NCBI RefSeq assembly: GCF_027587175.1
Contig: NZ_JAPCID010000018.1
Location: forward strand, 62,001-126,000
DNA from: Solirubrobacter deserti
GTDB lineage: Bacteria > Actinomycetota > Thermoleophilia > Solirubrobacterales > Solirubrobacteraceae
Direction of reading: 5' to 3'
Length of the DNA stretch: 64,000 bases
Numbering within the stretch: position 1 is the stretch's first letter; every line of letters starts with the position of its first letter. Shown one piece after another: positions 407 through 18,857 of this stretch. Below the pieces are notes generated by a model. That model searched no databases and had not been told where the DNA came from. It saw nothing but the letters and a program-made list of their open reading frames with translations. The position numbers and the translations under genes are program-made.

Positions 407-1984
407 ATGAGCATCACCGGGGATTGGGACCGACGGATCAGCCGGCGCACGCTGCTGCGGACCGGGGGGACGCTCGCGGCGGGCGTGGTGCTGGCGCCCG
501 CGCTCGCGCGCGCGACGTCGTGGAGCGCGGGCGGAGATCCGTTCTCGCTCGGGATCGCTTCGGGTGATCCCACGCCGGACGGGGTGGTGCTCTGGACACG
601 GCTGGCCCCGGCGCCGCTGACGGTCGACGGCGGGATGGGCACGCAGCGCTGCGCGGTGCAGTACGAGGTCGCGCTCGACGAGCAGTTCAAGTTCCCGGTC
701 AGGCGCGGGACCGAGTACGCGGTGGCCGAGTGGGCGCACAGCGTCCATGTCGACGTGCGCGGATTGCTGCCGGCGCGCGAGTACTTCTACCGCTTCAAGT
801 GGGGCGCGCACGTGAGCCCGGTCGGGCGCACGCGCACCGCGCCGCCGCCCTTTTTCGCCAACCGCGAGCTGAAGTTCGCGTTCGTCTCGTGCCAGAACTG
901 GGCGAACGGCTACTTCAACGCCTACGAGGACATCGTCGCGCGCGACCCGGAGTTCGTCGTGCACCTCGGCGACTACATCTATGAGAACTACGGCGGCGTG
1001 GCGCCTTTCCAGCAGCCGCTGCCGGCCGTGGAGCTGATGACGCTGTCGGACTATCGCATCCGGCACGCGCAGACCAAGACGGACCCGGACCTGCAGGCGG
1101 CGCACGCCGCACTGCCGTTCCTCGTGACCTGGGACGACCACGAGGTCGACAACGCCTACGCGAACCTCGAGAACGAGTCGGGCCAGTCCGTCGACGTGTT
1201 CCGCGCTCGCCGGGCCGCGGCGTACAAGGCCTACTACGAGCACATGCCGCTGCGGGGCTCCTCGATGCCGTCCGGGCCGGACATGGACCTGTACCGGCGC
1301 TTCCACTGGGGGCGGCTCGCGACGGTTAACATGATCGACGGGCGCCAGTACCGCTCGGGCGATGTGTCCGGTGGGACGCGGCGGCGCCACGGCTACACCG
1401 ACGCCGAGATCGACCCGTCGCGGACGATGCTCGGCGGCGCGCAGATGGCGTGGCTGCTGGAGGAGCTGTCGAGCTCGCAAGCCGGGTGGAACGTGCTCGC
1501 CAACAACAAGGCGTTCGCGCCCGTGGACCGCAACACCGCGATCGACCGGGTCGCGTTCAACAACCCGACGACCTGGGACGGCTATGTCGCCGACCGCCAG
1601 CGGATCCTGGACGCGATCGCCGCTCGCCGGGGACTGAACGCCGTGGTGATCACCGGCGACACGCACAGCAACTACGTGCGCAACGTCCCGCCGAACTTCA
1701 ACAGCCTGGACGGTGCCCCGGTCGCCACCGAGTTCCTGGGCACCTCCGTCAGCACGGGCGGAGACAAGGAGGAGCCGGTGATCCAGTGGCAGGACGATTC
1801 CCACAATCCGCACCAGCTCCTGCGCAACAACAACCGCGGCTACGTGGAGTGCGTGCTGACGCCGCAGCTGTGGGCGACGAACTTCCGGATCGTCCCCTCG
1901 GTCGAGACCCGCGTCCATGGCCAGGGCTCGACGCTCACCTCGTTCGTGGTCGAGAGCGGCCGCGGCGGCGCCGCGCGCGCATAG
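407..1984 (+). CDS. PhoD-family alkaline phosphatase/phosphodiesterase, Tat-exported (copy 1)
   Basis: 525 residues. The N-terminus carries a twin-arginine signal (SRRTLLRTGG, about residues 12-21) followed by a hydrophobic stretch and an ARA-type cleavage region, so the enzyme should fold in the cytoplasm and act outside. The PhoD N-terminal domain begins near FSLGIASGDPTPDG. Metallophosphatase motifs follow: HLGDYIYE (near 185), TWDDHEVDN (near 240) and TGDTHSN (near 415), which provide metal ligands in this family. Family members release phosphate from phosphomono- and diesters, usually during phosphate scavenging. Length is normal for PhoD. The ATG at 407 directly follows the preceding stop. 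A close paralogue follows at 2065. Confidence 0.9.
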   Translation: MSITGDWDRRISRRTLLRTGGTLAAGVVLAPALARATSWSAGGDPFSLGIASGDPTPDGVVLWTRLAPAPLTVDGGMGTQRCAVQYEVALDEQFKFPVRRGTEYAVAEWAHSVHVDVRGLLPAREYFYRFKWGAHVSPVGRTRTAPPPFFANRELKFAFVSCQNWANGYFNAYEDIVARDPEFVVHLGDYIYENYGGVAPFQQPLPAVELMTLSDYRIRHAQTKTDPDLQAAHAALPFLVTWDDHEVDNAYANLENESGQSVDVFRARRAAAYKAYYEHMPLRGSSMPSGPDMDLYRRFHWGRLATVNMIDGRQYRSGDVSGGTRRRHGYTDAEIDPSRTMLGGAQMAWLLEELSSSQAGWNVLANNKAFAPVDRNTAIDRVAFNNPTTWDGYVADRQRILDAIAARRGLNAVVITGDTHSNYVRNVPPNFNSLDGAPVATEFLGTSVSTGGDKEEPVIQWQDDSHNPHQLLRNNNRGYVECVLTPQLWATNFRIVPSVETRVHGQGSTLTSFVVESGRGGAARA

Positions 1985-2064
1985 CCACGTGACCCGTCAT
2001 CCAGGGGACGGGTCACGAACTTCAAACACATGGCAGTTCGACGCACTGTGGGGTGCCCGGAGAC

Positions 2065-3654
2065 ATGAGCATCAGTGGGGATTGGGACCGGCGCATCAGC
2101 CGGCGGACATTGCTTCGTACAGGCGGGACGCTCGCGGCCGGCGTCGTGCTCGCTCCGACGATCGCGCGCGCGACGTCGTCGTCGAGCGTGGACGGGAATC
2201 CGTTCTCGCTCGGCGTCGCCTCGGGCGACCCGACGCCGGACGGGGTCGTGCTGTGGACGCGGCTCGCCCCGCAGCCGGAGCTGGCCCTCGGCGGCATGCG
2301 CCCGGAGCGCTGCGCGGTCCAGTACGAGGTCGCGCTCGACGAGCAGTTCAAGTTCCCGGTCCGCAAGGGCGTGGAGTACGCCGTCCCCGAATGGGCGCAC
2401 AGCGTCCACGTCGAGGTCGCCGGCCTGCTGCCCGCGCGCGAGTACTTCTACCGCTTCAAGTGGGGTACGAACGTGAGCCCCGTCGGGCGTACGCGGACCG
2501 CGCCGCCGCCGCTGCACGCCAACCGCGAGCTGACCTTCGCGTTCGTGTCCTGCCACAACTGGGCCAACGGCTACTTCAACGTCTACGACGACATCGTCCG
2601 GCGCGACCCGCAGTTCGTCGTCCACCTCGGCGACTACATCTACGAGGGGCCCGGCGGCACCGCCCCGTTCCGCCCGCACCTGCCCGCCGTCAGGCTCGCG
2701 TCACTGTCGGACTTCCGGATCCGGCACGCGCAGTACAAGACCGATCCGGACCTGCAGAAGGTGCACGCGGCGCTGCCGTTCTTCATGACCTGGGACGACC
2801 ACGAGGTCGACAACAACTACGCGGGCCTCGTCTCCGGGACGGGGGAGGTGCCGCCGGAGCAGTTCCCGGCCGTCCGCGCCGCCGCCTACAAGGCCTACTA
2901 CGAGCACATGCCGCTCCGCAAGACCGCGGTGCCCTCCGCCGGCACCGGGATGATGATGTTCCGGACGATCCAGTGGGGCCGCCTGGCGAGCTTCTATGCG
3001 ATCGACGGGCGCCAGTACCGCTCCCCGAACGCCGATCCGACCAGCCCGCGCGGCGCGAACGGCTACACGCCGAGCGAGCTGGACCCGAACCGGACGATGC
3101 TCGGCGCCGAGCAGATGAGCTGGCTGCTGAACGAGCTGTCGACCACCAAGGCCGGCTGGAACATCCTGGCCAACAACAAGGCCTTCTCGCCGTTCGACCG
3201 CGACACGGCGCTCAACTCGGTCGAGTTCAACAGCCCCGACAACTGGGACGGCTATGTCGCCGACCGGCAGAAGATCCTCGCGACACTCGCCGAGCGCCGC
3301 ACGCCCAACCCGATCGTCATCACGGGCGACTCGCACAACAACTGGGTCCGCAACGTGCCGCCGGACTTCAACCGCCTCGACGGCGCGCCCGTGGCGACCG
3401 AGTTCATGGGCACCTCGCTCTCGACCGCCGGCAACACGCCGAACCCGTTCGTCCGCTGGAACAACGACGCCAACAACCCGCACCTGCTGTTCCGCAACAA
3501 CCAGCGCGGCTACGTCGAGTGCTCGATGACCCCGCAGTCCTGGACCTCACGGTTCCGGATCGTCACCGAGGTCGAGAAACGCGTGTACGGCACCGCCACG
3601 ACGCTGGCGACCTTCGGCGTCGAGAGCGGCAAGGCCGGCGCCATCCGCATGTAA
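2065..3654 (+). CDS. PhoD-family alkaline phosphatase/phosphodiesterase, Tat-exported (copy 2)
   Basis: 529 residues, strongly similar throughout to the upstream gene, including an almost identical N-terminus (SISGDWDRRISRRTLLRTGG) with the twin-arginine motif. HLGDYIYE (near 186), TWDDHEVDN and TGDSHNN match the PhoD metal-binding motifs. The ATG at 2065 is chosen because it aligns exactly with the start of copy 1; an upstream GTG is open but unlikely. The 80-base gap between the copies has no obvious hairpin, so one transcript is possible. A strong hairpin terminator follows at 3693-3720. Tandem duplication of an extracellular phosphatase is the simplest explanation; differing substrate preference is inference. 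Confidence 0.9.
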   Translation: MSISGDWDRRISRRTLLRTGGTLAAGVVLAPTIARATSSSSVDGNPFSLGVASGDPTPDGVVLWTRLAPQPELALGGMRPERCAVQYEVALDEQFKFPVRKGVEYAVPEWAHSVHVEVAGLLPAREYFYRFKWGTNVSPVGRTRTAPPPLHANRELTFAFVSCHNWANGYFNVYDDIVRRDPQFVVHLGDYIYEGPGGTAPFRPHLPAVRLASLSDFRIRHAQYKTDPDLQKVHAALPFFMTWDDHEVDNNYAGLVSGTGEVPPEQFPAVRAAAYKAYYEHMPLRKTAVPSAGTGMMMFRTIQWGRLASFYAIDGRQYRSPNADPTSPRGANGYTPSELDPNRTMLGAEQMSWLLNELSTTKAGWNILANNKAFSPFDRDTALNSVEFNSPDNWDGYVADRQKILATLAERRTPNPIVITGDSHNNWVRNVPPDFNRLDGAPVATEFMGTSLSTAGNTPNPFVRWNNDANNPHLLFRNNQRGYVECSMTPQSWTSRFRIVTEVEKRVYGTATTLATFGVESGKAGAIRM

Positions 3655-3692: not shown

Positions 3693-3720
3693 AGAAAAGC
3701 CCGCCTTAGCGGGCTTTTCT
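3693..3720. terminator. Perfect 12-bp hairpin, likely bidirectional terminator
   Basis: Arms 3693-3704 (AGAAAAGCCCGC) and 3709-3720 (GCGGGCTTTTCT) pair perfectly around a CTTA loop, with A/T-rich ends on both sides. It would stop the PhoD transcript on the plus strand. On the minus strand it sits just beyond the displaced tRNA-Leu 3' half, so it was probably the original terminator of tRNA-Leu before the element inserted. Confidence 0.8.
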
Positions 3721-3723
3721 TAG

Positions 3724-3776
3724 TGCGCCGAAGAGGACTCGAACCTCCACCCGGTTATCCCGGACCAGGCCCTCAA
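3724..3776 (-). repeat. attL: displaced 3' half of tRNA-Leu
   Basis: These 53 bases are identical to 10143-10195. They encode the anticodon loop to 3' end of tRNA-Leu, but no 5' half follows at 3777, so this is not a functional tRNA. It is the expected footprint of site-specific integration with crossover at or near the anticodon loop. Confidence 0.92.
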
Positions 3777-4064
3777 GACGGTTGAGCACTGACCGGATTG
3801 CGGCGATCTGCGCGGTGGAGCCGTTCGTGTTCGCGGGGGAGAACAGATTGGACGCCATGGACAACACGGATGTTGCCACGGGGCGTGCCGCCATAAGAGA
3901 CCAGGGGCGGGTTCAGGTGTTCTCCGGGAGCGTTCTCCGCCAGTCGAGTCGCGGTCAGTTCAGGCGCTGACTCCGGAGCCTCAGAGCGGCAATCTGTGTC
4001 GGCGAGCAGTCGGCGCCTTGCGTCGTCGGACTTCACGGCGGCGGAAAGCGAAGCCGGTCTCCTC
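3777..4064. other. Left end of the element: no convincing gene, candidate integrase arm sites
   Basis: About 290 bases with no well-supported gene; a 62-codon open frame here has no recognisable content. It contains GGAGAAC at 3838-3844 and GTTCTCC at 3919-3925 and 3932-3938. The right end, just inside attR, holds the same heptamer in the same orientation order. A 13-bp string (AGGTGTTCTCCGG) occurs at both 3915-3927 and 10039-10051. These are good candidates for integrase arm-type binding sites. Confidence 0.5.
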
Positions 4065-5771
4065 TTAGTCTCCGCGCCGGAGTTCCTCGGGGATTTCTAG
4101 CGCACGGGCGGCTCGCGGATTTCCTCCCGTGATCCGCCAGCACAAGCGCATGGTGATGAGTACACGCTCCAGTAGAAATCTCACGGCTTCCTCGGAGGTG
4201 CGTCCCTTTCGGATCTCGGGGTGCTCGGAAAGGAACCCCGCCGCGGACGCCTCGTCGAAGCTTCGGAACTCCAGCCGAACACCAGAGTCGCTGTCAGACG
4301 GCCACTCGTCGAATCGGATGGCTTCACGCAAGTCAAGCACCCAGACTCGGTCATCCGGCGCCCCAGCGAAGTCGATCGCCGCGACGTCCTCGAATATCCC
4401 GCAGAAGTCGCGTTGGTGGCTCGGTGGCACGGTTTGATGCTGAACAGGCGTAGCGCCGAATGCGGTAAGGCCTAGCTCACGTTCAACCTGCCAGTTGATC
4501 GGCAACACGATCAACGACGGGTGAAATCCGTCCGTGCGCATTCCCTCGATGGTCTTACTGAGCGCGCTGCGAAGGTCCCCCTGCTCCAGAGAGCTAGCTA
4601 CGTCCGGCAGAGCCGCGAACAACTGCTGAGCTTCGGCCGTGCGGGCCGAGCGCGCCAAGTCGCGGCCCATCATGTCGAGCCCGAGTACGCCAGACTCCGA
4701 GACGAAGAAGCTCTTCGGTGCCCAGTTGTATGCGACCAGCCCGGCGTTGTCAGGCGGCGGCTCGCGAAGCTCGTTCACGTTGCCTTGCAAGGCCAGGGTG
4801 TCGCGGAGGACGCGATACTCGGCCGCGCTTCGGAGAGCAGGTTGCCGAACTTCGTCAAGGCGCGTCTCATCGATGGAGGCGTTGCGGACTCGCTCCCGTT
4901 CTACGTCCTGTTGAGCCTCCCGGCCGCTGGCGAGCAATGTCGCTAGACGATCGAGACGCTGCGACCACCCGCGTTCAGGATCGGGCGGCGTTGCTGTTGA
5001 AGTCGTATCGAATGCATCCGCGACCCCGAGCACGGGTTGCCATCGATCCCGCTCCTGCACCAGTCTCCCGAGAAGCGCTTGGATCTCCTCGTGTCGCCAC
5101 TCAAACCAGTCGCGCGGGCGGAGCTCCGAAGGCTCCCCTGGCGCGACGAGCCGTGTGCACAGCAACAGCGCCGTGAGCAGGAGTTTCTCCGATGTCGGGA
5201 TGAAGTGGGCTGCCTCGTCGGGAAGCTCCGCGAGAAACCACATTGTCCAAGGGGGCTTGTCGCTCTCTTCCGCAGCTGTCGACGCGTCATAGGCGTCGAG
5301 GACCCACTCGACGTTCGGGAACTGCGATGCAAGCACTCCGAAAGCCGTGTGCAAGAAAGCGCTTCGTTCAACAGGCTGGGGACGCTCGAGGAGATGCACG
5401 ACCCACATTGCGAGACCGAAGCGCAGGATCTCTCTACGTCTTAGGAGAGCGAGCAGCTCTGACTGGACTTCGCCGCCGCGCCGTTCGTTGAACGCATGGG
5501 CAAGGTCCGCGTGAGGGAAAGCCGGCAGCCACACCTCATCGAACATTGCTTCCCACTTGCGTTCCACCGTCGCGAACGTGGCCTCATCAGCAAGGTCGAT
5601 GGCGCTCTTCAGGAGCCCGTTCACGGCGTTGAAGAACGAGAACCCGAGGTCGCGACCCTCATCCTCTGTCAGTGCGTCGGAGGAACCCGAGAAAGCGCTC
5701 TCGACGGCCCAACGTGCCGCGAAGAGGTGATCGACACTTTGATGGAGGAGCAACTCCTCGGAGTGGTTCAC
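4065..5771 (-). CDS. Unrecognised 568-aa soluble protein, element cargo
   Basis: I do not recognise this protein. It is 568 residues, mostly helical in character, without a signal peptide or clear membrane segment. Visible features are an acidic, leucine-rich N-terminal half with repeated helix-like LLERP/LLRRRE stretches and a mixed C-terminal half (about 340-568) with shorter hydrophobic strands such as HPSLIVLPINW and RVWVLDLREAI, which could form an alpha/beta domain. The GTG start at 5771 overlaps the stop of the upstream membrane-protein gene by 4 bases (GTGA), so the two are translationally coupled and probably act together. It is the last gene before attL. GC is lower than in host genes, consistent with acquisition. 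No motif gives a function. Confidence 0.8.
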   Translation of the reverse strand: MNHSEELLLHQSVDHLFAARWAVESAFSGSSDALTEDEGRDLGFSFFNAVNGLLKSAIDLADEATFATVERKWEAMFDEVWLPAFPHADLAHAFNERRGGEVQSELLALLRRREILRFGLAMWVVHLLERPQPVERSAFLHTAFGVLASQFPNVEWVLDAYDASTAAEESDKPPWTMWFLAELPDEAAHFIPTSEKLLLTALLLCTRLVAPGEPSELRPRDWFEWRHEEIQALLGRLVQERDRWQPVLGVADAFDTTSTATPPDPERGWSQRLDRLATLLASGREAQQDVERERVRNASIDETRLDEVRQPALRSAAEYRVLRDTLALQGNVNELREPPPDNAGLVAYNWAPKSFFVSESGVLGLDMMGRDLARSARTAEAQQLFAALPDVASSLEQGDLRSALSKTIEGMRTDGFHPSLIVLPINWQVERELGLTAFGATPVQHQTVPPSHQRDFCGIFEDVAAIDFAGAPDDRVWVLDLREAIRFDEWPSDSDSGVRLEFRSFDEASAAGFLSEHPEIRKGRTSEEAVRFLLERVLITMRLCWRITGGNPRAARALEIPEELRRGD

Positions 5772-7204
5772 GCCCGACCCCTTCTCGCGAGGGCGTACAT
5801 TGCTGGATAAAGCTGGAAAAGAGGCGCCGCTAGCGCCGGTGCACCGAGCCGCGTGGCCTCGATTGCGACGTGCTGTGGAAGGTACGTGATTGGGCCGATG
5901 AGTTCCCGACTATTCGCGTTCACCGCAGCGACGAGTTCGTCATAGAGGAAATCAGCGATCCGTTGTACCGGCCCGACGCCGAAGAATCCGGGGGCCATTA
6001 CCGCGCCCGCGAACGGAATACCCCAGGCCGCCGCGGCCTTAGGAAGCGCAAGGAGCACAAGTTCGTACAGCTGGCCGATGGCCCTCCACTCGTTTTCGCG
6101 TCCGCCCCGAGCCGCGCCCATAGCCTGCTGGTGAAGGCGCTCGAGCGCTTCCGTGAGCGCCCGATTCCCCGATTCGTCGTCTGCCCTGCGGACTCGCACA
6201 GCCGCGGCCAGACGCCGTCTCTTGCGCGGCGACACTTGTCCAGTGAGGTACAGGCCAGTCCCTGACTCTGCTACCGAGTCGCCGAGATTTACGGGCAGCC
6301 AAAGCTGTGAGTTAGGATGCCGCACCGCGAAACGGCTCAGGGGACCGAGGCGGACATCAACCACCTCACCCGCGCGCGACGCGACAATCGGCGTCGCGCC
6401 ACCAGGGTTCCCGAATGACGTGCGGATCGGCAGGGAAGAGCTACCCAGCCACAACGTAGCTGCCTGTCCGACAAGTTGCTGGGTCATCGCCTGGTCCACC
6501 AACCGTCGCACTCGCTCCTCTCGCATACGCCGCAACGCGGAGTCGTCGAGAAGCCGCACAACGCGGTGCATCACGTACCCCACTCCAACAAGAGTGATCC
6601 CCGAGACGATAATCGCCCACGCCGCTGGAAGCCCGCGCGGCGCATTGTGCCCCCAGCCGAATAGCACCACCCCGTCCAGAAGCAACGACACGAGCCCGAT
6701 TTCGATCACGAGAAGCAGTCGTGACGCGCCAGCGAACTCCCGTAGAGATCCACCGTACGCCTGTTGGCCTGAGCCGCGGAATGCCTCGAAGGCAAAAGCC
6801 ACCATGGCGACGGACACGCCGAGTGCAGCACCCACAACCTGCCAAAGCGTCCGAAGGAACTCCTCGGAGTCCTCGACATCGTCCAGGGGTCCCCATCGAA
6901 CATCGACCGGGATCAGGACGACAACGAAAAGGGCGGCAGCGTAGATGACAAAACGAGTCCAGCCAAGCCTTTGGCGCCGGCGCTGAATCGCGTCGGTCCA
7001 TCGCTTCCGCCGGTTTGAGGCAGACAGCAGTTTGAGTGCTTGACGTCGTAAGGACAGCCGTCCTGCAACAGGCGCCGGATGTACGGCAAGCATGCGAAAG
7101 AGCCAGCCGATTGCGGCTAGGTTGCTCGCTATCGCGGCAAGCAGCAGTACGTTGTAGAGCCATCCGTGAGTATCCATAGAGTCGTTGGGTGCAGATTCAA
7201 TCAT
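5768..7204 (-). CDS. Five-helix membrane protein with cytoplasmic C-domain, element cargo (DUF2254-like layout)
   Basis: 478 residues. Hydrophobic segments lie at about 15-37, 84-105, 128-145, 167-187 and 196-215, with a basic loop (RRKRW, RRRQR) between the first two and a soluble C-terminal half of ~260 residues. That half contains WLPVNLGDSVAESGTG, which recalls the 'GD-FV-G' stretch of DUF2254 membrane proteins; the resemblance is by eye and weak. The ATG at 7204 is used, with another in-frame ATG nine codons later. It is first of a coupled pair with the 568-aa protein and is the likely membrane partner. Location beside an integrase suggests a horizontally moved accessory function, perhaps defence or envelope stress; neither is shown by the sequence. 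Confidence 0.78.
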   Translation of the reverse strand: MIESAPNDSMDTHGWLYNVLLLAAIASNLAAIGWLFRMLAVHPAPVAGRLSLRRQALKLLSASNRRKRWTDAIQRRRQRLGWTRFVIYAAALFVVVLIPVDVRWGPLDDVEDSEEFLRTLWQVVGAALGVSVAMVAFAFEAFRGSGQQAYGGSLREFAGASRLLLVIEIGLVSLLLDGVVLFGWGHNAPRGLPAAWAIIVSGITLVGVGYVMHRVVRLLDDSALRRMREERVRRLVDQAMTQQLVGQAATLWLGSSSLPIRTSFGNPGGATPIVASRAGEVVDVRLGPLSRFAVRHPNSQLWLPVNLGDSVAESGTGLYLTGQVSPRKRRRLAAAVRVRRADDESGNRALTEALERLHQQAMGAARGGRENEWRAIGQLYELVLLALPKAAAAWGIPFAGAVMAPGFFGVGPVQRIADFLYDELVAAVNANSRELIGPITYLPQHVAIEATRLGAPALAAPLFQLYPAMYALARRGRA

Positions 7205-7539
7205 CTGAACGCAGCGGTCGAGCGGTTCAGTGAAGACTGTTCTTTCAGTGTCGTCGAACCAACGCGATGAGCCGTGCCCTTAGCTAGGGCTACGGTGGGC
7301 ACTGCGCACGGCAGGCAAATGCCTTGGCCGGACCACACGATGTGCCAGGCCTCAAAACGCGTCGGCACTCAGAAGCTCGGCGAGCTTCACATACTTGCGG
7401 TGCTCTCACATGGCGGCTCAGTCGATGTGGGCATGCGACCTGGCTTGGGTGCGGGGCAGACGCAGACCGGCAACACCGGATTTAGATCGGGCACGCAGTT
7501 GCACTCAAGTGCTGTATACAGCGGCGCTACAGTTCAGAC
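7205..7539. promoter_or_regulatory. Divergent control region with a 12-bp palindrome
   Basis: This 335-base gap separates the cargo operon (leftward) from the small basic-protein gene (rightward) and must hold both promoters. A perfect palindrome, GCTGTATACAGC (7511-7522), lies 17 bases before the GTG at 7540 and contains a TATAC-like element, so it could be an operator overlapping a promoter. A 95-codon open frame from 7274 has no recognisable protein character and is not called. Confidence 0.45.
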
Positions 7540-7926
7540 GTGGGTCGCAAGAGCCGACTGAAGCGCGAACGAGCCGCGAGTGCGCCGCCTCTAGAGTCAG
7601 ATGAACCTCCCGCGCTGCTGGCCGATGTAGCGGCCACCATCGAGCCGCCGGCGACCATCGAGCCACCCGTCATACGTCGCGCGGGACGTTCACGGAAGAA
7701 GCGTCCCGTTGGTGCTCGTGTAGCGCGAGTTGCGGTCGACGACGTGACCTGGGAGGCGTTCAAGAAGCTGTGCGGGTCCACGCCCGCAAGCATTCGGCTC
7801 GGTCAGATGGTCGCGGCTGAGGTAGAACGTGCGCGGGAGCCGTCTACGAGCACGGACGCCGTGTCCGCCCTCGCGGCGATTCGCGCGCACCTCGACGAGC
7901 TGGAAGCTCTCGCCCGAAGCCGGTAG
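7540..7926 (+). CDS. Small basic protein, ribbon-helix-helix-like C-terminal half
   Basis: 128 residues from a GTG start. The first half is very basic and Pro/Ala-rich (MGRKSRLKRERAAS, RAGRSRKKRPVGAR). The second half runs VARVAVDDVTWEAFKKL, then SIRLGQMVAAEVER. This is a short strand plus two helices like ribbon-helix-helix DNA-binding proteins of plasmids and small elements, and it ends in a probable coiled helix. The assignment is by pattern only. The palindrome just upstream fits autoregulation. It is transcribed away from the cargo and towards the excisionase-like gene, 63 bases further on. Confidence 0.6.
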   Translation: MGRKSRLKRERAASAPPLESDEPPALLADVAATIEPPATIEPPVIRRAGRSRKKRPVGARVARVAVDDVTWEAFKKLCGSTPASIRLGQMVAAEVERAREPSTSTDAVSALAAIRAHLDELEALARSR

Positions 7927-7989: not shown

Positions 7990-8301
7990 ATGGACATGAC
8001 GGCCAATCTGGACACTGATCTGCTCAAGCCGACCGAGGTCGCTGCGCGCCTGCGCGTCTCGCGCTCCTGGGTCTACGAGGCGGCGAAGGAAGGACGCATT
8101 CCGAGCGTGCGGCTCGGTGGTCCTGACGGGCCGCTGCGCTTCCTCGCCCACGACGTCGACGCGTGGCTCGACCGCGCACGCAGCGCTTGGGTACCGGGCG
8201 AAACGACGACGGCCGCGACGCGTCGAGCGGCGCGGCCCGTGTCGCTGGTGCCGGCTCAGCTGTCGATCGACACGATCATCGACGGCCAGGGCGCTCCGTA
8301 G
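7990..8301 (+). CDS. Excisionase-like HTH (helix-turn-helix type 17) DNA-binding protein
   Basis: 103 residues. LLKPTEVAARLRVSRSWVYEAAKEG, read in two parts (residues ~10-34), is the winged-helix signature of MerR-like excisionase/AlpA proteins, followed by the usual IPSVRLGG and LRFLAHDVDAWL. Such proteins bend attachment-site DNA and direct excision, or act as element regulators. Start choice is uncertain: TTG 7987, ATG 7990 or ATG 7996, none with a clear Shine-Dalgarno sequence. It converges with the XRE gene and their 3' ends overlap by 26 bases. Its place near the integrase supports a role in excision. Confidence 0.75.
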   Translation: MDMTANLDTDLLKPTEVAARLRVSRSWVYEAAKEGRIPSVRLGGPDGPLRFLAHDVDAWLDRARSAWVPGETTTAATRRAARPVSLVPAQLSIDTIIDGQGAP

Positions 8302-8614
8302 TCGAGCCGAGCAAAGTCTCGCGTCCGCCGTCGGGGAATCGAGCGATCACCTCGAGCTCGCCGCCGAGCGCCGCGACGTAACGCTGCAGCGTCGACACGC
8401 GCACGTCGTCCTCGCGCTCGATCCGCGACACGTTCGGCCGGCTCGTGCCGAGGTGCTCAGCAACGTGCTCCTGCGTCACGCCTCGCCGCTCGCGCAACTC
8501 GTGCAGCGCGATCTCCAACTCGACCACGCGCTTGATCGTCTCGACGCGCTCGCGACGAGGCGGGCGCCGACGCCGGACGTCGTCGGCGCTCGTCAGCTTG
8601 GGTCGTTCGGTCAC
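8276..8614 (-). CDS. XRE-family HTH regulator
   Basis: 112 residues from a GTG start. The central region (EIALHELRERRGVTQEHV, then AEHLGTSRPNVSRIERED) is a typical XRE/Cro helix-turn-helix, followed by STLQRYVAALGGELEV as seen in HigA-type antitoxins and phage-like repressors. No RelE/HigB toxin gene is adjacent; only a 17-codon frame precedes it, overlapping by 4 bases. It lies downstream of the integrase on the same strand and is likely the element's repressor. A perfect 10-bp inverted repeat at 8670-8700 is a plausible operator. Confidence 0.75.
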   Translation of the reverse strand: MTERPKLTSADDVRRRRPPRRERVETIKRVVELEIALHELRERRGVTQEHVAEHLGTSRPNVSRIEREDDVRVSTLQRYVAALGGELEVIARFPDGGRETLLGSTTERPGRR

Positions 8615-8664
8615 GGCGAGTCCTCCCGCAGCGCGTCGAGCAAGTCGTCCGCGTCGTAGGGCAT
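8611..8664 (-). CDS. 17-codon leader frame overlapping the XRE start
   Basis: An ATG at 8664 opens an acidic 17-residue frame (MPYDADDLLDALREDSP) whose TGA overlaps the GTG of the XRE gene (GTGA). It could couple translation of the regulator or be the remnant of a lost partner gene such as a toxin. There is no clear Shine-Dalgarno sequence. Low confidence that it is a real product. Confidence 0.25.
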   Translation of the reverse strand: MPYDADDLLDALREDSP

Positions 8665-8669
8665 CAGCG

Positions 8670-8700
8670 TAATGATTGCATTACCGAAACGCAATCATTA
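8670..8700. promoter_or_regulatory. Perfect AT-rich inverted repeat at the integrase stop codon
   Basis: Arms TAATGATTGC (8670-8679) and GCAATCATTA (8691-8700) are exact inverted copies with an 11-base spacer. The right arm includes the integrase stop codon. The low GC content stands out from the surroundings. It is more like an operator for the downstream XRE gene than a terminator, because no T-run follows and the arms are AT-rich. Confidence 0.45.
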
Positions 8701-10082: not shown

Positions 10083-10111
10083 CCCACCGGGACGAACGGC
10101 TCCAGAACGTC

Positions 10112-10137
10112 GAAAGGCCCGCCGGAGCGGGCCTTTC
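10112..10137. terminator. Hairpin terminator beyond the restored tRNA-Leu
   Basis: Arms GAAAGGCCCGC (10112-10122) and GCGGGCCTTTC (10127-10137) pair perfectly around CGGA. It lies just after the tRNA 3' end on the minus strand and belongs to the element, replacing the host terminator now stranded at 3693-3720. It could also insulate the integrase promoter from tRNA transcription. Confidence 0.75.
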
Positions 10138-10142
10138 ACACA

Positions 10143-10195
10143 TGCGCCGAAGAGGACTCGAACCTCCACCCGGTTATCCCGGACCAGGCCCTCAA
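10143..10195 (-). repeat. attR: element-derived 3' half of tRNA-Leu
   Basis: Exact copy of 3724-3776. It completes the functional tRNA, so integration does not destroy it. Confidence 0.92.
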
Positions 10196-10227
10196 CCTGG
10201 CGCGTCTACCAATTCCGCCATCGGCGC
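10143..10227 (-). tRNA. tRNA-Leu(GAG)
   Basis: The minus strand folds into a full cloverleaf: acceptor GCGCCGA/TCGGCGC, D-arm with GGTAGACGC, anticodon stem CCAGG/CCTGG enclosing TTGAGGG (anticodon GAG), a long class II variable arm (CCGGGATAACCGG) and the T-loop TTCGAGT. The discriminator base is A; CCA is not encoded. The 53 bases from the anticodon loop to the 3' end are supplied by the inserted element (attR). Confidence 0.93.
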
Positions 10228-10297
10228 GAGAGCGGCGGCGAAGTATAGCCAGCGACGGGGCAAGGTTGAGTCCGTCCGCCGAGCCGGGTACCTTGTG

Positions 10298-10311
10298 CGA
10301 ACACACGTTCG
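10298..10311. promoter_or_regulatory. SOS (LexA) box upstream of lexA
   Basis: CGAACACACGTTCG has perfect CGAAC and GTTCG half-sites with a 4-base spacer, the known actinobacterial/Gram-positive LexA operator pattern. It ends 24 bases before the lexA start codon, which implies autorepression. Confidence 0.9.
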
Positions 10312-10335
10312 GGAACTCGAGGAGACGCACAGCGT

Positions 10336-10983
10336 ATGGACATCGGTAAGGACCTGACGAAGCGCCAGCAGGAGATCTTCGACTTCATCAAGCGCTATTC
10401 AGCGAGCCACGGCTATCCGCCCACAGTGCGGGACATCGGCAAGGCCGTGGGCCTGGCGTCGTCCTCGACGGTGCACGCGCACCTCGCGAACCTCGAGAAG
10501 GTCGGCCTGCTGCGGCGGGACCCGTCGAAGCCGCGCGCGATCGAGCTGCTGGACAAGGCGGCGTCGACCGCCGCGTCCGCCATGGACGCCGTCAAATCGG
10601 CCGTGTCCCCGAGCGGGCTGCCGCTCGTCGGGCACGTGGCCGCCGGTCAGCCGCTGCTGGCCGAGGAGAACATCGAGGAGTACGTCCACATCCCGGAGAT
10701 CGCGGGCGGAGAGGACGGCGAGTACCTCCTGCGCGTGCGCGGGGACTCGATGATCAAGGCGGGCATCCTCCCGGACGACGTAGTGGTCGTCCGCAAGCAG
10801 GATACCGCCGCGGACGGCGAGATCGTCGTCGCGCTCGTGGGCGAGGAAGCGACCGTCAAGCGCTTCTTCCGCGAGGACGACCACATTCGCCTGCAACCGG
10901 AGAACGACGCGCTGGAGCCCATCCGGTCGCGTGAGGTCAACGTCCTCGGCCGGGTGGTCGGGGTGATGCGGAGGGTCGCATAA
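10336..10983 (+). CDS. lexA: LexA, SOS repressor
   Basis: 215 residues. The N-terminal winged helix (LTKRQQEIFDFIKRY, GYPPTVRDIGKAVGLASSS) binds SOS boxes. The C-terminal domain is a Ser-Lys autoprotease: cleavage at Ala-Gly in VAAGQP (about 103/104), nucleophile Ser in RGDSMI (about 138) and general base Lys in ATVKRFF (about 175). RecA filaments trigger self-cleavage and derepress the regulon. A consensus box lies upstream, so the gene is autoregulated. The stop overlaps the ATG of the next gene by one base, making an operon with an uncharacterised zinc-ribbon protein. imuB and dnaE2, both with similar boxes, lie within 12 kb. Confidence 0.97.
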   Translation: MDIGKDLTKRQQEIFDFIKRYSASHGYPPTVRDIGKAVGLASSSTVHAHLANLEKVGLLRRDPSKPRAIELLDKAASTAASAMDAVKSAVSPSGLPLVGHVAAGQPLLAEENIEEYVHIPEIAGGEDGEYLLRVRGDSMIKAGILPDDVVVVRKQDTAADGEIVVALVGEEATVKRFFREDDHIRLQPENDALEPIRSREVNVLGRVVGVMRRVA

Positions 10984-11564
10984 TGAGTGCGCTGATGGCC
11001 GATCACCGCGACTTCGCGGATGAAGAGCGCCAGGCGTCCCTGTTCGACGTGCTCGCGCAGCCGTCGGCACGGCCGAGCGGCGAAGAGCCCGAGGGCGGCC
11101 GCGTCGTCGAGTTCCCGCGCCGCCGTGAGGTCCCGGCGTCCGCCGAGCCGGGGGCGGACGCGTCGGCGCTGACCCCGTCGCCCGCCACTGAAGCTCTCGG
11201 CGAGCGTGCGTTGGTGCCCGCTGCCGCGCCGTCGCCGGCCGAGACGCTCGCGCCTCCCACGGGTCTCCTCGAGCCCGCTCCGACGGTGGCGCCCGAGGAC
11301 GAGTGGCTCACGGAGATCGCGCCGGACGTCGACGAGGCGGAACGCTCGATGCTCGCTCCGGACGTTCCCGGCGCACCGCGCACGCAGAGGGCCGCGGGCG
11401 CGCCCTTGGCCGGACCGACGCTCGACGACGTGGTGTCGCGCGTATGGGAGGGTCTGGTCATGGCGCTGCCCGCGGCGTGCCCGGTCTGCGATGGCGAGGT
11501 GCTGCCGGCACCGCCCGGCGTCAACGGCGGCAGCTGCACCTCTTGCGGGACGACGATCGACTAG
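10983..11564 (+). CDS. Uncharacterised lexA-linked protein with C-terminal zinc ribbon
   Basis: 193 residues. The first ~150 are low-complexity, acidic and rich in Pro, Ala and Glu (likely disordered). The last ~35 carry CPVCDGEV and, 14 residues on, SCTSCGTTID, a four-Cys zinc-ribbon-like knuckle. The segment ASLFDVLAQ near residue 20 resembles a short linear motif. The ATG shares one base with the lexA stop, so it should be induced by DNA damage from the same SOS box. I do not recognise a family. A role in SOS or DNA metabolism is inferred only from linkage. Confidence 0.75.
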   Translation: MSALMADHRDFADEERQASLFDVLAQPSARPSGEEPEGGRVVEFPRRREVPASAEPGADASALTPSPATEALGERALVPAAAPSPAETLAPPTGLLEPAPTVAPEDEWLTEIAPDVDEAERSMLAPDVPGAPRTQRAAGAPLAGPTLDDVVSRVWEGLVMALPAACPVCDGEVLPAPPGVNGGSCTSCGTTID

Positions 11565-11573
11565 CCTCGTCGC

Positions 11574-11951
11574 ATGAGTGCAGCCGACCGCCAGGAACTC
11601 GCTGGACTCGAGGAGGAGTGGATGTCCGCGATGCAGTCGCGGGACATGGATCGCCTTGAGGCACTGGTCGCGGACGGCTTCCGCTTCACCGCGGTTCACC
11701 TCAATGACGAGCCGATGTCACGCGAGCAGTGGATGGACGCCGCCCGCGACGGCTACATGATCACCTCGTTCGCGTTCGAGCGCATGGAGATCGACGTGTT
11801 CGGCGACACCGCCGTCATCCACTCGCGCTTCAGTCAGGTCGCGAGCTGGGAGCAGAACAACCTCTCGAACGTGTTCCGCCTGACGGACGTCTGGTCCCGC
11901 GGGACGAACGGGTGGCAGGTCGTCGCCCGCCACTCGTCGACCCTGGGCTGA
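11574..11951 (+). CDS. NTF2-like/DUF4440 small protein
   Basis: 125 residues with the cone-fold pattern of SnoaL/DUF4440 proteins: an N-terminal helix (LAGLEEEWMSAMQSRDMDRL), EALVADGFRFT, then strands ending in NVFRLTDVWSRGTNGWQVVARHSS. Members are small enzymes or ligand-binding proteins; the substrate cannot be read from the sequence. The start is an ATG 10 bases after the zinc-ribbon gene, so it may be on the lexA transcript. It converges with the dehydrogenase gene, 3 bases apart. Confidence 0.75.
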   Translation: MSAADRQELAGLEEEWMSAMQSRDMDRLEALVADGFRFTAVHLNDEPMSREQWMDAARDGYMITSFAFERMEIDVFGDTAVIHSRFSQVASWEQNNLSNVFRLTDVWSRGTNGWQVVARHSSTLG

Positions 11952-11954
11952 GCG

Positions 11955-12803
11955 CTACTTCGAGTAGTCGTAGAAGCCGCGCCCGGTCTTGCGACCGAGC
12001 AGGCCCGCCTCGACCATCCGGTTCAGCAGCGCCGGCGAGACCGAAGCCGGATCGCGGAACTCGTCGTGCAGCGACTCGGCGACCGCCAGCAACGTGTCCA
12101 AGCCGATCAGATCGGAGAGCCGCAGCGGACCCATCGGGTGCGCGCAGCCCAGCACCATGCCCTGGTCGATGTCCTCCTTGGACGCGAACCCCGACTCATA
12201 CATGCGGATCGCGCTCAGCAGGTACGGGATCAGCAGCGCGTTCACGACGAAGCCCGCCCGGTCCTGGGAGTCGATGCACTGCTTGCCCAACGTGCCCTCG
12301 GCGAACGCGCGCACGCTCTCGACCGTCTCGGGCTCGGTCATGATCGACGTCACGAGCTCCACCAGCGGCAGCACGGGCACCGGGTTGAAGAAGTGCATGC
12401 CCAACACCCGGCCGGGGCGCTTGGTCTCCGCGCCGAGCTTCATGATCGGCACCGAGGACGTGTTGGAGGCGAGGAACTGCGCGTCGGGCAGCAGCTCGTC
12501 GAGCCGCCGGAACACGTCGCGCTTGAGCGCCTCGTTCTCGACGACGGCCTCGATCGCCGCGTCCGCGCCCTCGAGGTCCTCGAACACCGAGGTCACCACC
12601 AGGTGGTCGAGCGCCGCGGCCTTGTCCTCCTCGCTCGCCTTGCCCGAGCGCACGGCCCGGTCCAAGGAGCGCTCGATCGCCGCACGGGCACGCTCGACGC
12701 CCGCCTCGTCCGCCTCGACCACAGTCACGTCAACGCCCGAACGCGCGCAGACCTCCGCGATCCCCGCGCCCATCTGGCCACCACCGATCACACCGACTCG
12801 CAT
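11955..12803 (-). CDS. 3-hydroxybutyryl-CoA / 3-hydroxyacyl-CoA dehydrogenase
   Basis: 282 residues, the usual size for the single-domain-pair enzyme. The N-terminal Rossmann motif is VGVIGGGQMGAGIAEV. Catalytic features follow: SNTSS and GMHFFNPVPVLPLVE (the HFFNP signature with the catalytic His), then DRAGFVVNALLIPYL and a C-terminal helical dimerisation domain ending GLLGRKTGRGFYDY. It reduces acetoacetyl-CoA-type substrates or oxidises 3-hydroxyacyl-CoA with NAD(P), in fatty-acid oxidation or butyrate/PHB-type metabolism. No other beta-oxidation genes are adjacent. Confidence 0.92.
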   Translation of the reverse strand: MRVGVIGGGQMGAGIAEVCARSGVDVTVVEADEAGVERARAAIERSLDRAVRSGKASEEDKAAALDHLVVTSVFEDLEGADAAIEAVVENEALKRDVFRRLDELLPDAQFLASNTSSVPIMKLGAETKRPGRVLGMHFFNPVPVLPLVELVTSIMTEPETVESVRAFAEGTLGKQCIDSQDRAGFVVNALLIPYLLSAIRMYESGFASKEDIDQGMVLGCAHPMGPLRLSDLIGLDTLLAVAESLHDEFRDPASVSPALLNRMVEAGLLGRKTGRGFYDYSK

Positions 12804-14799: not shown

Positions 14800-16086
14800 A
14801 TGATCGTATGTGCCCTCTTCCCCCGTTTCGAGCTCGCGGTCGCCGCCGGCGGCCGCGAGGCGCTCGCCGCCGCGCCGCTCGCCCCCGCGCCCGAGATCGG
14901 CCGCGAGCAACTGGTGGGTGAGACGTCCGCCGCCGCCGAAGCCCACGGCGTCCGCGCCGGCCTGCGCCTCGGCGAGGCCCTGGCACGCTGTCCGACGCTC
15001 CAGCTCGTCACGCCCGACCCTGCCGGTGTCGCCGACGCCTGGGAGACCATCGTCGACGCCCTCGAAGGCATCGGCGCCGCGGTCGAGACCGACCGCCCCG
15101 GCATGGCCTGGTTCGACGAACGTGGGCTTCGCCGCCTCCACGGCGGAAGCGTCGAAGGCGTGATCACGGTCACCCGCCGGGCACTGGCCAAATGCCTCCG
15201 CGAACCTCGATTCGCCGTCGCGTCGGACCCGCCCGGTGCGTCCGCGCCGCACGCGGGTTCCGCCTCAAGTGGCCTGTCGGCCGGCGCTGGCGCGCGCATC
15301 GGCGTCGCGCCGTCTCGCTTCGCCGCGCTGTCCGCCGCGCACCGTGCGCGGGCCCGCCGGCCCGAGGTCGCGCCGGAGAAGCCGGCGAGCCTGGCCGCCT
15401 ACCTCGCGCCGTTGCCGGTCTCGCTGTTGACCTCCCGGCCCGAGGTCGCGGCTCTGCCCGAAGCGCTGGAGCGCTTCGGGATCGCGACCCTCGGCGAGCT
15501 GGCCAAGCTGCCCCGCGCCGCGCTGGCCGACCGCTTCGGCGAGCCCGGCCTGCTCGCGCGCGACCTCGCCCTCGGCCGCGACACTCCCTTGCGGCCCCGC
15601 GTCCCTGCCGAGCGCCTGCAAGAGGTGCTCGAGCTGCCGGAGTCGGCGCTCGGCCCTCAGCTCGAACGTGCCCTCGGCATGCTCATCGACCGCGTGCTCG
15701 CCCGGCCCGAGCGCCGCGGCCGGACGGTCCGCGCCGTCGTGCTCTCCGCCGCGCTCGTCGGCGGCGGCACCTGGCGCACCCAGCTCACCTTCCGCGAGTC
15801 CCTCGCCGATCCCCGCCGGATGCGCCTCGCGCTCGTCGGCCGCCTCACCGAACTCCCCGCACCCGCCGACTCACTGCGCCTGCGCGTGGAGGCCTTCGGC
15901 CCGCCGTCCGGGGATCAGCGCTCCCTGCTGGCCGAGCCGGCCGCCATCCGCCGCGCCCGCCTGCGCGAAGCCGTCCGCCAGACCCGCGCCGCCGCCGGCC
16001 CGGACGCCGCCCTGCGCATCCTCGCTGTGGACCCCGACTCGCGCGTGCCAGAACGTCGCCTCGCGCTCGCGCCGTGGGAGCCATGA
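14800..16086 (+). CDS. imuB: ImuB, Y-family polymerase-like mutasome subunit
   Basis: 428 residues. The N-terminal part (MIVCALFPRFELAVAAGG) and the helix-hairpin-helix (LERFGIATLGELAKLPRAAL) place it with ImuB, a Y-family polymerase homologue lacking catalytic activity. ImuB links the sliding clamp to DnaE2 for damage-induced mutagenesis. The little-finger region follows (TVRAVVLSAALVGGGTWRTQL). The first residues give MIVC rather than the acidic catalytic motif of active Y-polymerases. An SOS box sits directly upstream. No imuA' gene precedes it; the upstream gene is an exported PLC. The TGA overlaps the ATG of the next frame (ATGA). Confidence 0.9.
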   Translation: MIVCALFPRFELAVAAGGREALAAAPLAPAPEIGREQLVGETSAAAEAHGVRAGLRLGEALARCPTLQLVTPDPAGVADAWETIVDALEGIGAAVETDRPGMAWFDERGLRRLHGGSVEGVITVTRRALAKCLREPRFAVASDPPGASAPHAGSASSGLSAGAGARIGVAPSRFAALSAAHRARARRPEVAPEKPASLAAYLAPLPVSLLTSRPEVAALPEALERFGIATLGELAKLPRAALADRFGEPGLLARDLALGRDTPLRPRVPAERLQEVLELPESALGPQLERALGMLIDRVLARPERRGRTVRAVVLSAALVGGGTWRTQLTFRESLADPRRMRLALVGRLTELPAPADSLRLRVEAFGPPSGDQRSLLAEPAAIRRARLREAVRQTRAAAGPDAALRILAVDPDSRVPERRLALAPWEP

Positions 16087-16394
16087 GCCCCACGCCCTTG
16101 CCGCCTTTCGTCGATCTCGTCTCGCACGTGTCTCAGCCTCGCCGGGCGCTCAGGCCTTGGGTGCCCACGCCTGCGCGGACCATCGTCGCTCTCGTCTCGC
16201 GCGTGCCCCCGCGTCGCCGGGCGCTCAGGCCTTGGGTGTCCACGCCTGCGCGAACCATTGTCGCTCTCGTCTCGCGCGTGCCCACGCGTCGCCGGGCGCT
16301 TGCGCCTTGGGTGTCCACGCCTGCGCAGCCCATTGTCGCTCTCGACTCGCGCGTGGCCCGGCATTGCCGGGTGCTCGTGCCGTGTGAGCCATGA
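16083..16394 (+). CDS. Repeat-derived 103-codon frame between imuB and DUF6504
   Basis: This frame starts with an ATG overlapping the imuB stop (ATGA) and ends with a TGA overlapping the DUF6504 start (again ATGA), so it is coupled on both sides. It is made of 25-residue repeats of the type VSRVPPRRRALRPWVSTPA and is strongly basic, without recognisable fold. The DNA repeats are copies of the imuB 3' end. The last 56 bases align without gaps to the end of imuB at 43 positions, including the CGAGCCATGA-type junction. It may be a recently born peptide gene or simply a frame kept open to preserve coupling. Confidence 0.5.
   Translation: MSPTPLPPFVDLVSHVSQPRRALRPWVPTPARTIVALVSRVPPRRRALRPWVSTPARTIVALVSRVPTRRRALAPWVSTPAQPIVALDSRVARHCRVLVPCEP
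16119..16391 (+). repeat. 75-bp imperfect tandem repeats derived from the imuB 3' end
   Basis: Units begin at 16119, 16194, 16269 and 16344 (last one partial), each opening with G(T/A)CTCGCRCGTG and containing GCCGGGCGCT at 16141, 16216 and 16291. The period is exactly 75 bases, a multiple of three. The parental sequence is at 16036 onward inside imuB. Confidence 0.85.
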
Positions 16395-17026: not shown

Positions 17027-17824
17027 CTAGCGCGAGAGGCGCTGGTAGCGACGCACCGACAGCGGGAGGAAGATCGCGGTGATCACGAGCGGCCACACAG
17101 CCGCCATCAGCACCGCGTTGGAGGCGATCCAGGAACTGCCCGTCTCCGCGCCGACGTTGCCGAAGAGCTCGCGGGCGGCGCCCACGGTGGAGGAGAGCGG
17201 GTTCCACTCGGCCAGGAAGCCGAGCCAGTCCGGCATCAGCTCCGGGGCGACGAAGGCGCTGGTGACCATGGTGAACGGGAACAGCAGACCCCAGATCGCG
17301 CCCGCGGCTTCCGGGCTGCCGACGATCAGGCCGAGGTAGATCCCGATCCACAGGCAGGCGAAGCGCAACAGCAACAACAGCAGCACGGCGAACAGCGCGT
17401 TGAGCAGGCCGTCGTGCCAGCTCCAGCCGACCACCAGGCCGCACGCGATGGTGATCAGCAGGCCAAGGAACGAGTTCACCATGTCGGCCGAGCAGCGGCC
17501 GGCGACGATCGCCGAAGGCGCCATCGGCAGCGAGCGGAAGCGGTCCATCACGCCGCGTTCGATGTCGGTGGCGACGACGGTCATGGTGTTGCCGATGCCG
17601 AACGCCATGGTCATGGCGAAGATGCCGGGCATCAGGAAGTCGCGGTAGTCGCCGCCGCCGGGGACGACCATGCCGCTCCCGAAGACGTAGCCGAACAGCA
17701 GCACGAACATGATCGGGAACACCAGCTCGCCGACCACGCGGACCGGGTTGATGACCCACGTGATGAGGTCGCGCCGGGTGATTGTCCACGTGTCGTACAC
17801 GCCCCACTGCAGGCGCGCGATCAC
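17027..17824 (-). CDS. ABC-2 type permease of a DrrAB-like drug exporter
   Basis: 265 residues from a GTG start that overlaps the ATPase stop (GTGA), so the pair is translationally coupled. Six hydrophobic segments can be seen (for example VVGELVFPIMFVLLFGYVFG and LLLLLLRFACLWIGIYLGLI), with the PEAAGAIWGLLFPFTMVTSA region typical of the DrrB/NodJ ABC-2 family. With the ATPase it should form a membrane exporter for hydrophobic compounds such as antibiotics. The substrate cannot be read. A TetR regulator is divergent upstream of the ATPase. Confidence 0.9.
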   Translation of the reverse strand: MIARLQWGVYDTWTITRRDLITWVINPVRVVGELVFPIMFVLLFGYVFGSGMVVPGGGDYRDFLMPGIFAMTMAFGIGNTMTVVATDIERGVMDRFRSLPMAPSAIVAGRCSADMVNSFLGLLITIACGLVVGWSWHDGLLNALFAVLLLLLLRFACLWIGIYLGLIVGSPEAAGAIWGLLFPFTMVTSAFVAPELMPDWLGFLAEWNPLSSTVGAARELFGNVGAETGSSWIASNAVLMAAVWPLVITAIFLPLSVRRYQRLSR

Positions 17825-18792: not shown

Positions 18793-18807
18793 ATCCGACT
18801 CCTCCGA

Positions 18808-18839
18808 GTACGCTGTACGCATAAGCGAGTACAGCGTAC
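18808..18839. promoter_or_regulatory. Palindromic operator between ABC and TetR genes
   Basis: GTACGCTGTAC (18808-18818) and GTACAGCGTAC (18829-18839) are perfect inverted copies 10 bases apart. They lie between the two divergent start codons (18792 and 18858), the expected site for TetR to repress both genes. Confidence 0.8.
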
Positions 18840-18857
18840 GCACTTTGTCAAGTCTGC

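What the first reader, a model, noticed from the sequence alone, without database searches (positions are those of the whole stretch)
4065..7204. Coupled two-gene cargo of unknown function in a small integrative element
Seen: a five-helix membrane protein and a 568-aa soluble protein, overlapping by GTGA, sit at the attL end of a tRNA-borne element, in lower GC than the host. Known: small integrase-borne elements at tRNA genes often carry compact accessory modules, including anti-phage systems with a membrane effector and a soluble sensor. Inference: the pair is one functional module and could be an undescribed defence or stress system. Neither protein shows a motif I recognise beyond a faint DUF2254-like layout.
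Basis: partly seen in the sequence, partly recalled or inferred. Interest (0 to 1): 0.8.

Follow-up and report, generated by a model that had tools for sequence, protein, structure and literature searches.

The report
Mobile membrane-tethered candidate defence gene pair
A small mobile DNA element in a soil actinobacterium (Solirubrobacter) carries two undescribed genes, one for a membrane protein and one for a soluble protein, that are kept together in relatives, fused into a single protein in one of them, and usually found among anti-virus genes, so they are probably a new bacterial immune system, although nobody has tested this.

Summary
The pair lies in a 6.4-kb element bounded by a perfect 53-bp repeat of the tRNA-Leu 3' end. 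A homologous pair (44% / 33% identity, again with a 4-base overlap) occurs in another Solirubrobacter genome. In a third genome of the same class both proteins form one continuous 1,026-aa polypeptide. No full-length relative of the soluble protein was found without the membrane protein. The membrane protein is a remote relative of DUF2254 (profile-profile probability 96%, shuffled controls near zero) but falls below Pfam's cut-off, so it is not filed as a member. The soluble protein has no known family.

The defence reading is contextual only. A sister element with the same backbone at the same tRNA carries a KAP-NTPase (PADLOC QatA/PifA-like) in place of the pair. The other intact homologues sit near AbiE, or DUF3644 and type IIG methylase genes. 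The soluble protein's C-terminal domain recurs beside a TIR gene. I propose a membrane-anchored sensor-effector that damages the membrane on infection (about 0.45). That the two proteins form one unit is close to certain. The family is undescribed in Pfam, NCBIfam, PADLOC and PHROGs; no function has been shown.

The parts
3724..3776 (.). attachment-site repeat, left end (copy of the tRNA-Leu 3' end)
   Evidence: perfect 53-bp direct repeat with 10143-10195
10143..10195 (.). attachment-site repeat, right end, inside the tRNA-Leu gene
10143..10227 (-). tRNA-Leu (gag), the insertion site
   Evidence: ARAGORN, Rfam RF00005 53.6 bits
4065..5771 (-). soluble partner (P0001, 568 aa): helical N-terminal part plus alpha/beta C-terminal domain
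   Evidence: ORF; homologue L059:10350-12035 33%; fused form L075
4068..4691 (-). C-terminal domain of P0001 (about residues 361-568), shared with a protein beside a TIR gene in G508
   Evidence: hmmsearch E 1.5e-5 among 3,378 ORFs, next unrelated hit 0.058
5768..7204 (-). membrane partner (P0002, 478 aa): five predicted helices, DUF2254-like core, helical C-terminal tail
   Evidence: homologue L059:8935-10371 44%; fused form L075
6188..6898 (-). DUF2254-like segment of P0002 (about residues 103-339: membrane core and following beta domain)
   Evidence: hhalign probability 95.7, E 1.1e-8, score 72 against at most 24 for 50 shuffles
5768..5771 (-). GTGA stop/start overlap of the two genes (ATGA at the same place in G584)
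7540..7926 (+). element backbone ORF of unknown function, conserved in the sister element
   Evidence: 90% DNA identity over 7484-8653 in L024
7987..8301 (+). excisionase-like HTH_17 protein
   Evidence: Pfam HTH_17 46 bits, PHROG excisionase
8276..8614 (-). Xre-type antitoxin-like regulator; its toxin partner is deleted here
   Evidence: Pfam HTH_31/HTH_3; Gp49-type toxin present in L024
8698..10143 (-). tyrosine integrase (likely start at 10002)
   Evidence: Pfam Phage_integrase 83.5 bits, PHROG integrase 3.9e-65
3907..7483 (.). exchangeable cargo segment: replaced by a KAP-NTPase cargo in the sister element of G577
   Evidence: identity to L024 stops at 3906 and resumes at 7484

Best explanation
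The two genes encode one membrane-anchored, two-component unit carried as exchangeable cargo of a small integrative element, most likely an anti-phage (or anti-mobile-element) system of the abortive type. SHOWN by sequence: the element, the pairing, a fused single-protein form, remote DUF2254 homology of the membrane half, and cargo exchange on the same backbone. INFERRED: the fusion implies that the soluble protein continues the cytosolic C-terminal tail of the membrane protein, so it sits at the inner face of the membrane. Its helical array and C-terminal domain act as the sensor or regulator; that domain also occurs without the membrane module, beside a TIR gene, which suggests a regulatory part usable with different effectors. 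On infection the DUF2254-like membrane module changes state and permeabilises or disturbs the inner membrane, stopping phage production at the cost of the cell.
For: Same backbone (integrase, xis, xre; 86-90% DNA identity) at the same tRNA in G577 carries a KAP NTPase instead (Pfam KAP_NTPase 78 bits; PADLOC QatA 4.7e-16, PifA 8.9e-16). The homologous pair in G584 lies between a TrwC relaxase, IS110-like transposases and an integrase, within 9 kb of AbiEii (241 bits) and AbiEi. The fused 1,026-aa form in G675 is one gene away from DUF3644 (PADLOC PDC-S19, 5.5e-88) and near a type IIG-like methylase and a DUF488 protein (PDC-M45C). The C-terminal domain recurs beside a TIR gene and a DUF2971 gene. 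Sporadic distribution: three independent intact loci among the sampled Actinomycetota genomes. Control: 1 of 10 ordinary genes of this window hits PADLOC at E<=1e-8.
Against: No enzyme motif, and no PADLOC/NCBIfam hit or Pfam hit above cut-off for either protein. Neighbourhood evidence rests on three loci. No relative in phages, plasmids or viral contigs. Structure models without an alignment were uninformative (pLDDT 38 and 47), so the permeabiliser step is a guess. DUF2254 itself has no known function. A P0002-like protein also lies beside lexA at the end of a contig in G748, not obviously in a mobile context.
Confidence: 0.45

Rival explanations
1. A mobile envelope or stress module that is not defence: the DUF2254-like protein is an osmotic or membrane-stress sensor or channel, and the soluble partner is its cytosolic regulator.
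For: Remote DUF2254 homology; ordinary DUF2254 genes occur in about a third of relatives (21 of 61). No defence hit for the proteins themselves.
Against: Sporadic distribution, mobile cargo position, exchange with a KAP cassette, and PADLOC-type neighbours in both other intact loci.
Confidence: 0.25
2. An element-maintenance or exclusion module: the pair keeps the element in the cell (toxin-antitoxin-like) or excludes related elements.
For: It is the sole cargo of a small element; the sister element carries a Gp49/Xre toxin-antitoxin pair whose toxin is deleted here.
Against: A fused single-protein form is hard to square with a toxin-antitoxin pair; the large soluble protein is untypical; the G584 and G675 copies are not in this element type.
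Confidence: 0.15
3. Inert passenger: recently acquired foreign genes with no function in this host.
For: Lower GC; a truncated membrane-gene remnant beside a DDE transposase in G010.
Against: Both frames are intact in two independent genomes with conserved pairing and a 4-base overlap, and intact as a fusion in a third.
Confidence: 0.1

Closest known systems
DUF2254 (Pfam PF10011), predicted membrane proteins of unknown function
   Same: About 220 columns of membrane core plus following beta domain align (hhalign probability 95.7, E 1.1e-8)
   Different: Below Pfam's cut-off (13.3 and 22.1 bits against 28.8); the last third of the DUF2254 model is not matched and is replaced by a helical tail leading into the soluble partner; found with a dedicated partner or fused to it
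KAP-NTPase defence proteins (PifA, QatA), cargo of the sister element
   Same: Occupy the same cargo slot of the same integrative backbone at the same tRNA
   Different: No P-loop NTPase or sequence similarity in our pair
TIR-containing defence loci (Thoeris, bSEFIR and similar)
   Same: The soluble protein's C-terminal domain recurs in a gene next to a TIR gene in G508
   Different: No TIR domain in our pair; no DUF2254-like protein was recognised in the TIR locus
tRNA-borne integrative elements / genomic islands with exchangeable defence cargo
   Same: tRNA 3'-end repeat, tyrosine integrase, excisionase-like gene, swappable cargo
   Different: Very small (6.4 kb) with a single two-gene cargo of undescribed family

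Membership tests
DUF2254 (PF10011) | score above Pfam's gathering cut-off (28.8 bits) | tested here: not met
   P0002 13.3 bits, G584 homologue 22.1 bits, fused form no hit
DUF2254 (PF10011) | detectable homology to the family by profile-profile comparison | tested here: met
   probability 95.7, score 72.1 against maximum 23.6 in 50 column shuffles and 24.9 reversed
DUF2254 (PF10011) | full-length domain including its C-terminal third | tested here: not met
   match ends near model position 262 of 368
Known anti-phage systems in PADLOC-DB 2.0.0 | model match for either protein | tested here: not met
   no family at E<=1 for P0001, P0002 or the G584 pair, none at E<=0.1 for the fused form
Anti-phage defence system (functional sense) | protects cells from phage | not testable with these tools
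   needs expression and phage challenge
Anti-phage defence system (genomic sense) | location among defence genes or as defence-type mobile cargo | tested here: met
   based on three independent loci, with 1 of 10 background genes positive
tRNA-associated integrative element | direct repeat of the tRNA 3' end at both ends | tested here: met
   53 bp, 100%
tRNA-associated integrative element | tyrosine integrase next to the tRNA | tested here: met
tRNA-associated integrative element | clean empty site in a relative | tested here: inconclusive
   G530 has the same flanks about 2.5 kb apart but with a different insert
Type II toxin-antitoxin pair | small toxin plus small antitoxin neutralising it | tested here: not met
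   478 and 568 aa proteins, fused into one chain in G675

The most novel reading that the evidence does not exclude
A new abortive-infection system in which a DUF2254-like membrane protein is the effector and a cytosolic partner, split or fused, is the sensor; the sensor's C-terminal domain is a module shared with TIR-based systems. This would give the DUF2254 superfamily its first function.
Probability: 0.35. Interest if true: 0.75.

Novelty: new variant of a known kind. Interest (0 to 1): 0.57.

Why it matters
It adds a previously undescribed protein pair, with a fused form as independent evidence of partnership, to the list of testable defence candidates in a poorly sampled class of Actinomycetota. 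It also gives a concrete handle on the uncharacterised DUF2254-type membrane fold, and a compact integrative element whose cargo slot could be mined in relatives for more candidates.

Tried and rejected
Weak single-sequence genome hits (L004, L005, L008-L011) look like chance alignments. I suspected an HK97-capsid-like fold in the soluble protein's C-terminal domain; hhalign against three phage capsids scored no better than against other phage proteins and a PDB profile search was empty, so it is dropped. The DUF4175 hit of P0001 (16.6 bits against cut-off 27.3) did not recur in the homologue. Two first hhalign runs used wrongly chosen frames and were discarded. Viral contigs, plasmids and phages hold no relatives. 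'CTD versus middle region 95%' is an artefact of overlapping input sequences. Papers: only two hold the term DUF2254, and the one read concerns predicted knots; DUF2971 with TIR and phage gave none.

Full report
OBSERVATION. The two ORFs are as described: 4065-5771 (-), 568 aa, and 5768-7204 (-), 478 aa, sharing GTGA. The 478-aa protein has five hydrophobic helices and the other none. The segment has 63% GC and third-position GC of 67-72%, against ~70% and 93-96% in host genes. A perfect 53-bp repeat at 3724-3776 and 10143-10195 is the 3' end of tRNA-Leu(gag). Between the repeats lie a tyrosine integrase, an Xre regulator, an excisionase-like HTH_17 protein and a small ORF. The window comes from a Solirubrobacter species; the first 14 kb are identical to contig NZ_QPKJ02000006.1 of Solirubrobacter sp. 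CPCC 204708.

THE ELEMENT IS A PLATFORM WITH EXCHANGEABLE CARGO. In G577, of the same genus, the same tRNA-Leu carries an element with the same left end (window 3693-3906, 91%) and the same right half (from 7484 on, 86-90%). The middle is different: window 3907-7483 is replaced by 4.5 kb encoding a 1,016-aa KAP-family P-loop NTPase and a 197-aa protein. The NTPase matches Pfam KAP_NTPase at 78 bits and the PADLOC models QatA (4.7e-16) and PifA (8.9e-16). In G530 the two window flanks are about 2.5 kb apart with an unrelated insert. The tRNA-Leu and lexA stretch (window 10100-11000) is conserved in all seven Solirubrobacter genomes searched, and tRNA-Leu(gag) was confirmed in five of the relatives.

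THE PAIR IS A UNIT. Single-sequence searches found only this species. Following a weak DUF2254 match in G584 gave a second, adjacent pair: L059 8935-10371 (44% to P0002) and 10350-12035 (33% to P0001), with ATGA at the equivalent overlap. Profiles built from both pairs then found G675, of another family in the same class, where one ORF of 1,026 aa aligns end to end with P0002 followed by P0001. The G675 contig is 9.4 kb and the genome 76% complete, so its taxonomic placement is less certain than the fusion itself. The fused protein lacks the first residues of P0001 and aligns continuously, so a simple frameshift error joining two genes is unlikely. Fragments of the membrane protein occur in G010 (63 aa at 57% identity, beside a DDE transposase), G748 (cut by a contig end), G706 and G372. 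No full-length P0001 relative without P0002 was found. Its C-terminal domain alone occurs in G508.

FAMILY RELATIONS. P0002 and its homologues are remotely related to DUF2254. Profile-profile alignment of the three sequences with DUF2254 proteins of relatives gives probability 95.7, E 1.1e-8, score 72, against at most 24 for 50 column shuffles and 25 reversed (two-sequence version). They fall below Pfam's cut-off and lack the last third of the domain, so they are not filed as members. DUF2254 has no known function; the one paper read treats it as a predicted-knot membrane family (PMC11184937). P0001 has no match above cut-off in Pfam, and none that is significant in NCBIfam, PADLOC, PHROGs or the PDB. 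Its C-terminal domain is also found in a gene just upstream of a TIR gene and a DUF2971 gene in G508 (E 1.5e-5 among 3,378 ORFs, next unrelated ORF 0.058).

CONTEXT OF HOMOLOGUES. In G584 the pair lies between a TrwC relaxase, IS110-like transposases and a tyrosine integrase, with AbiEii and AbiEi within 9 kb. In G675 the fusion is one gene away from DUF3644 (PADLOC PDC-S19, 294 bits) and close to a type IIG-like methylase and a DUF488 protein (PDC-M45C, 153 bits). As a rough background, 1 of 10 ordinary window genes hits PADLOC at E<=1e-8. This is consistent with defence but is a small sample.

MECHANISM. Shown: pairing, fusion, membrane topology by hydropathy, remote DUF2254 homology, cargo exchange. 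Inferred: because the soluble protein continues the cytosolic tail of the membrane protein in the fusion, it is held at the inner face of the membrane. Its C-terminal domain, reused beside a TIR gene, is probably the sensing or regulatory part. The DUF2254-like membrane part is probably the effector that disturbs the membrane on infection. The last step is the weakest, since no usable structure was obtained.

VERDICT. The interpretation as one functional module is supported; as defence it is plausible and favoured but unproven. Membrane-effector systems carried on small integrative elements are a known kind; this protein family is undescribed in the libraries searched, so I rate it a new variant of a known kind, interest 0.57.

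Noticed in passing
window 8276-8698; L024 7970-8682: The Xre gene of the backbone is the antitoxin half of a Gp49/HigB-like toxin-antitoxin pair that is complete in the G577 sister element; about 280 bp of toxin gene are missing in the window, leaving an orphan antitoxin.
   Followed up: partly
L078 3452-9039 (G508): Possible defence cluster: 268-aa protein with hydrophobic helices, gene with the P0001 C-terminal domain, TIR gene, DUF2971 gene, all on one strand.
   Followed up: partly
L076 1-546 and 1462-2304 (G748): A P0002-like gene cut by the contig end lies on the other side of the same lexA / tRNA-Leu(gag) neighbourhood that holds the element in the window.
   Followed up: partly
L028 2229-3870, L025 11480-12960: Other integrases at the same tRNA-Leu in G446 and at a second tRNA-like copy in G579, suggesting a recurrent insertion hotspot next to lexA.
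   Followed up: partly
window 407-1984 and 2053-3654: Two tandem paralogous genes (about 78% identical DNA, PhoD-like phosphodiesterase appearance with Tat-like start) at the left flank of the element.
   Followed up: no
window about 16090-16390: Degenerate repeats of roughly 65 bases after the ORF 14800-16086, seen as repeated peptide LVSRVPPRRRALRPWVSTPARTIVA in an overlapping frame.
   Followed up: no
window 17821-18843 (-): Ordinary-looking host gene that matches PADLOC mad3 (99 bits) and AriA; not checked whether it belongs to a MADS-type system or is a generic domain hit.
   Followed up: no
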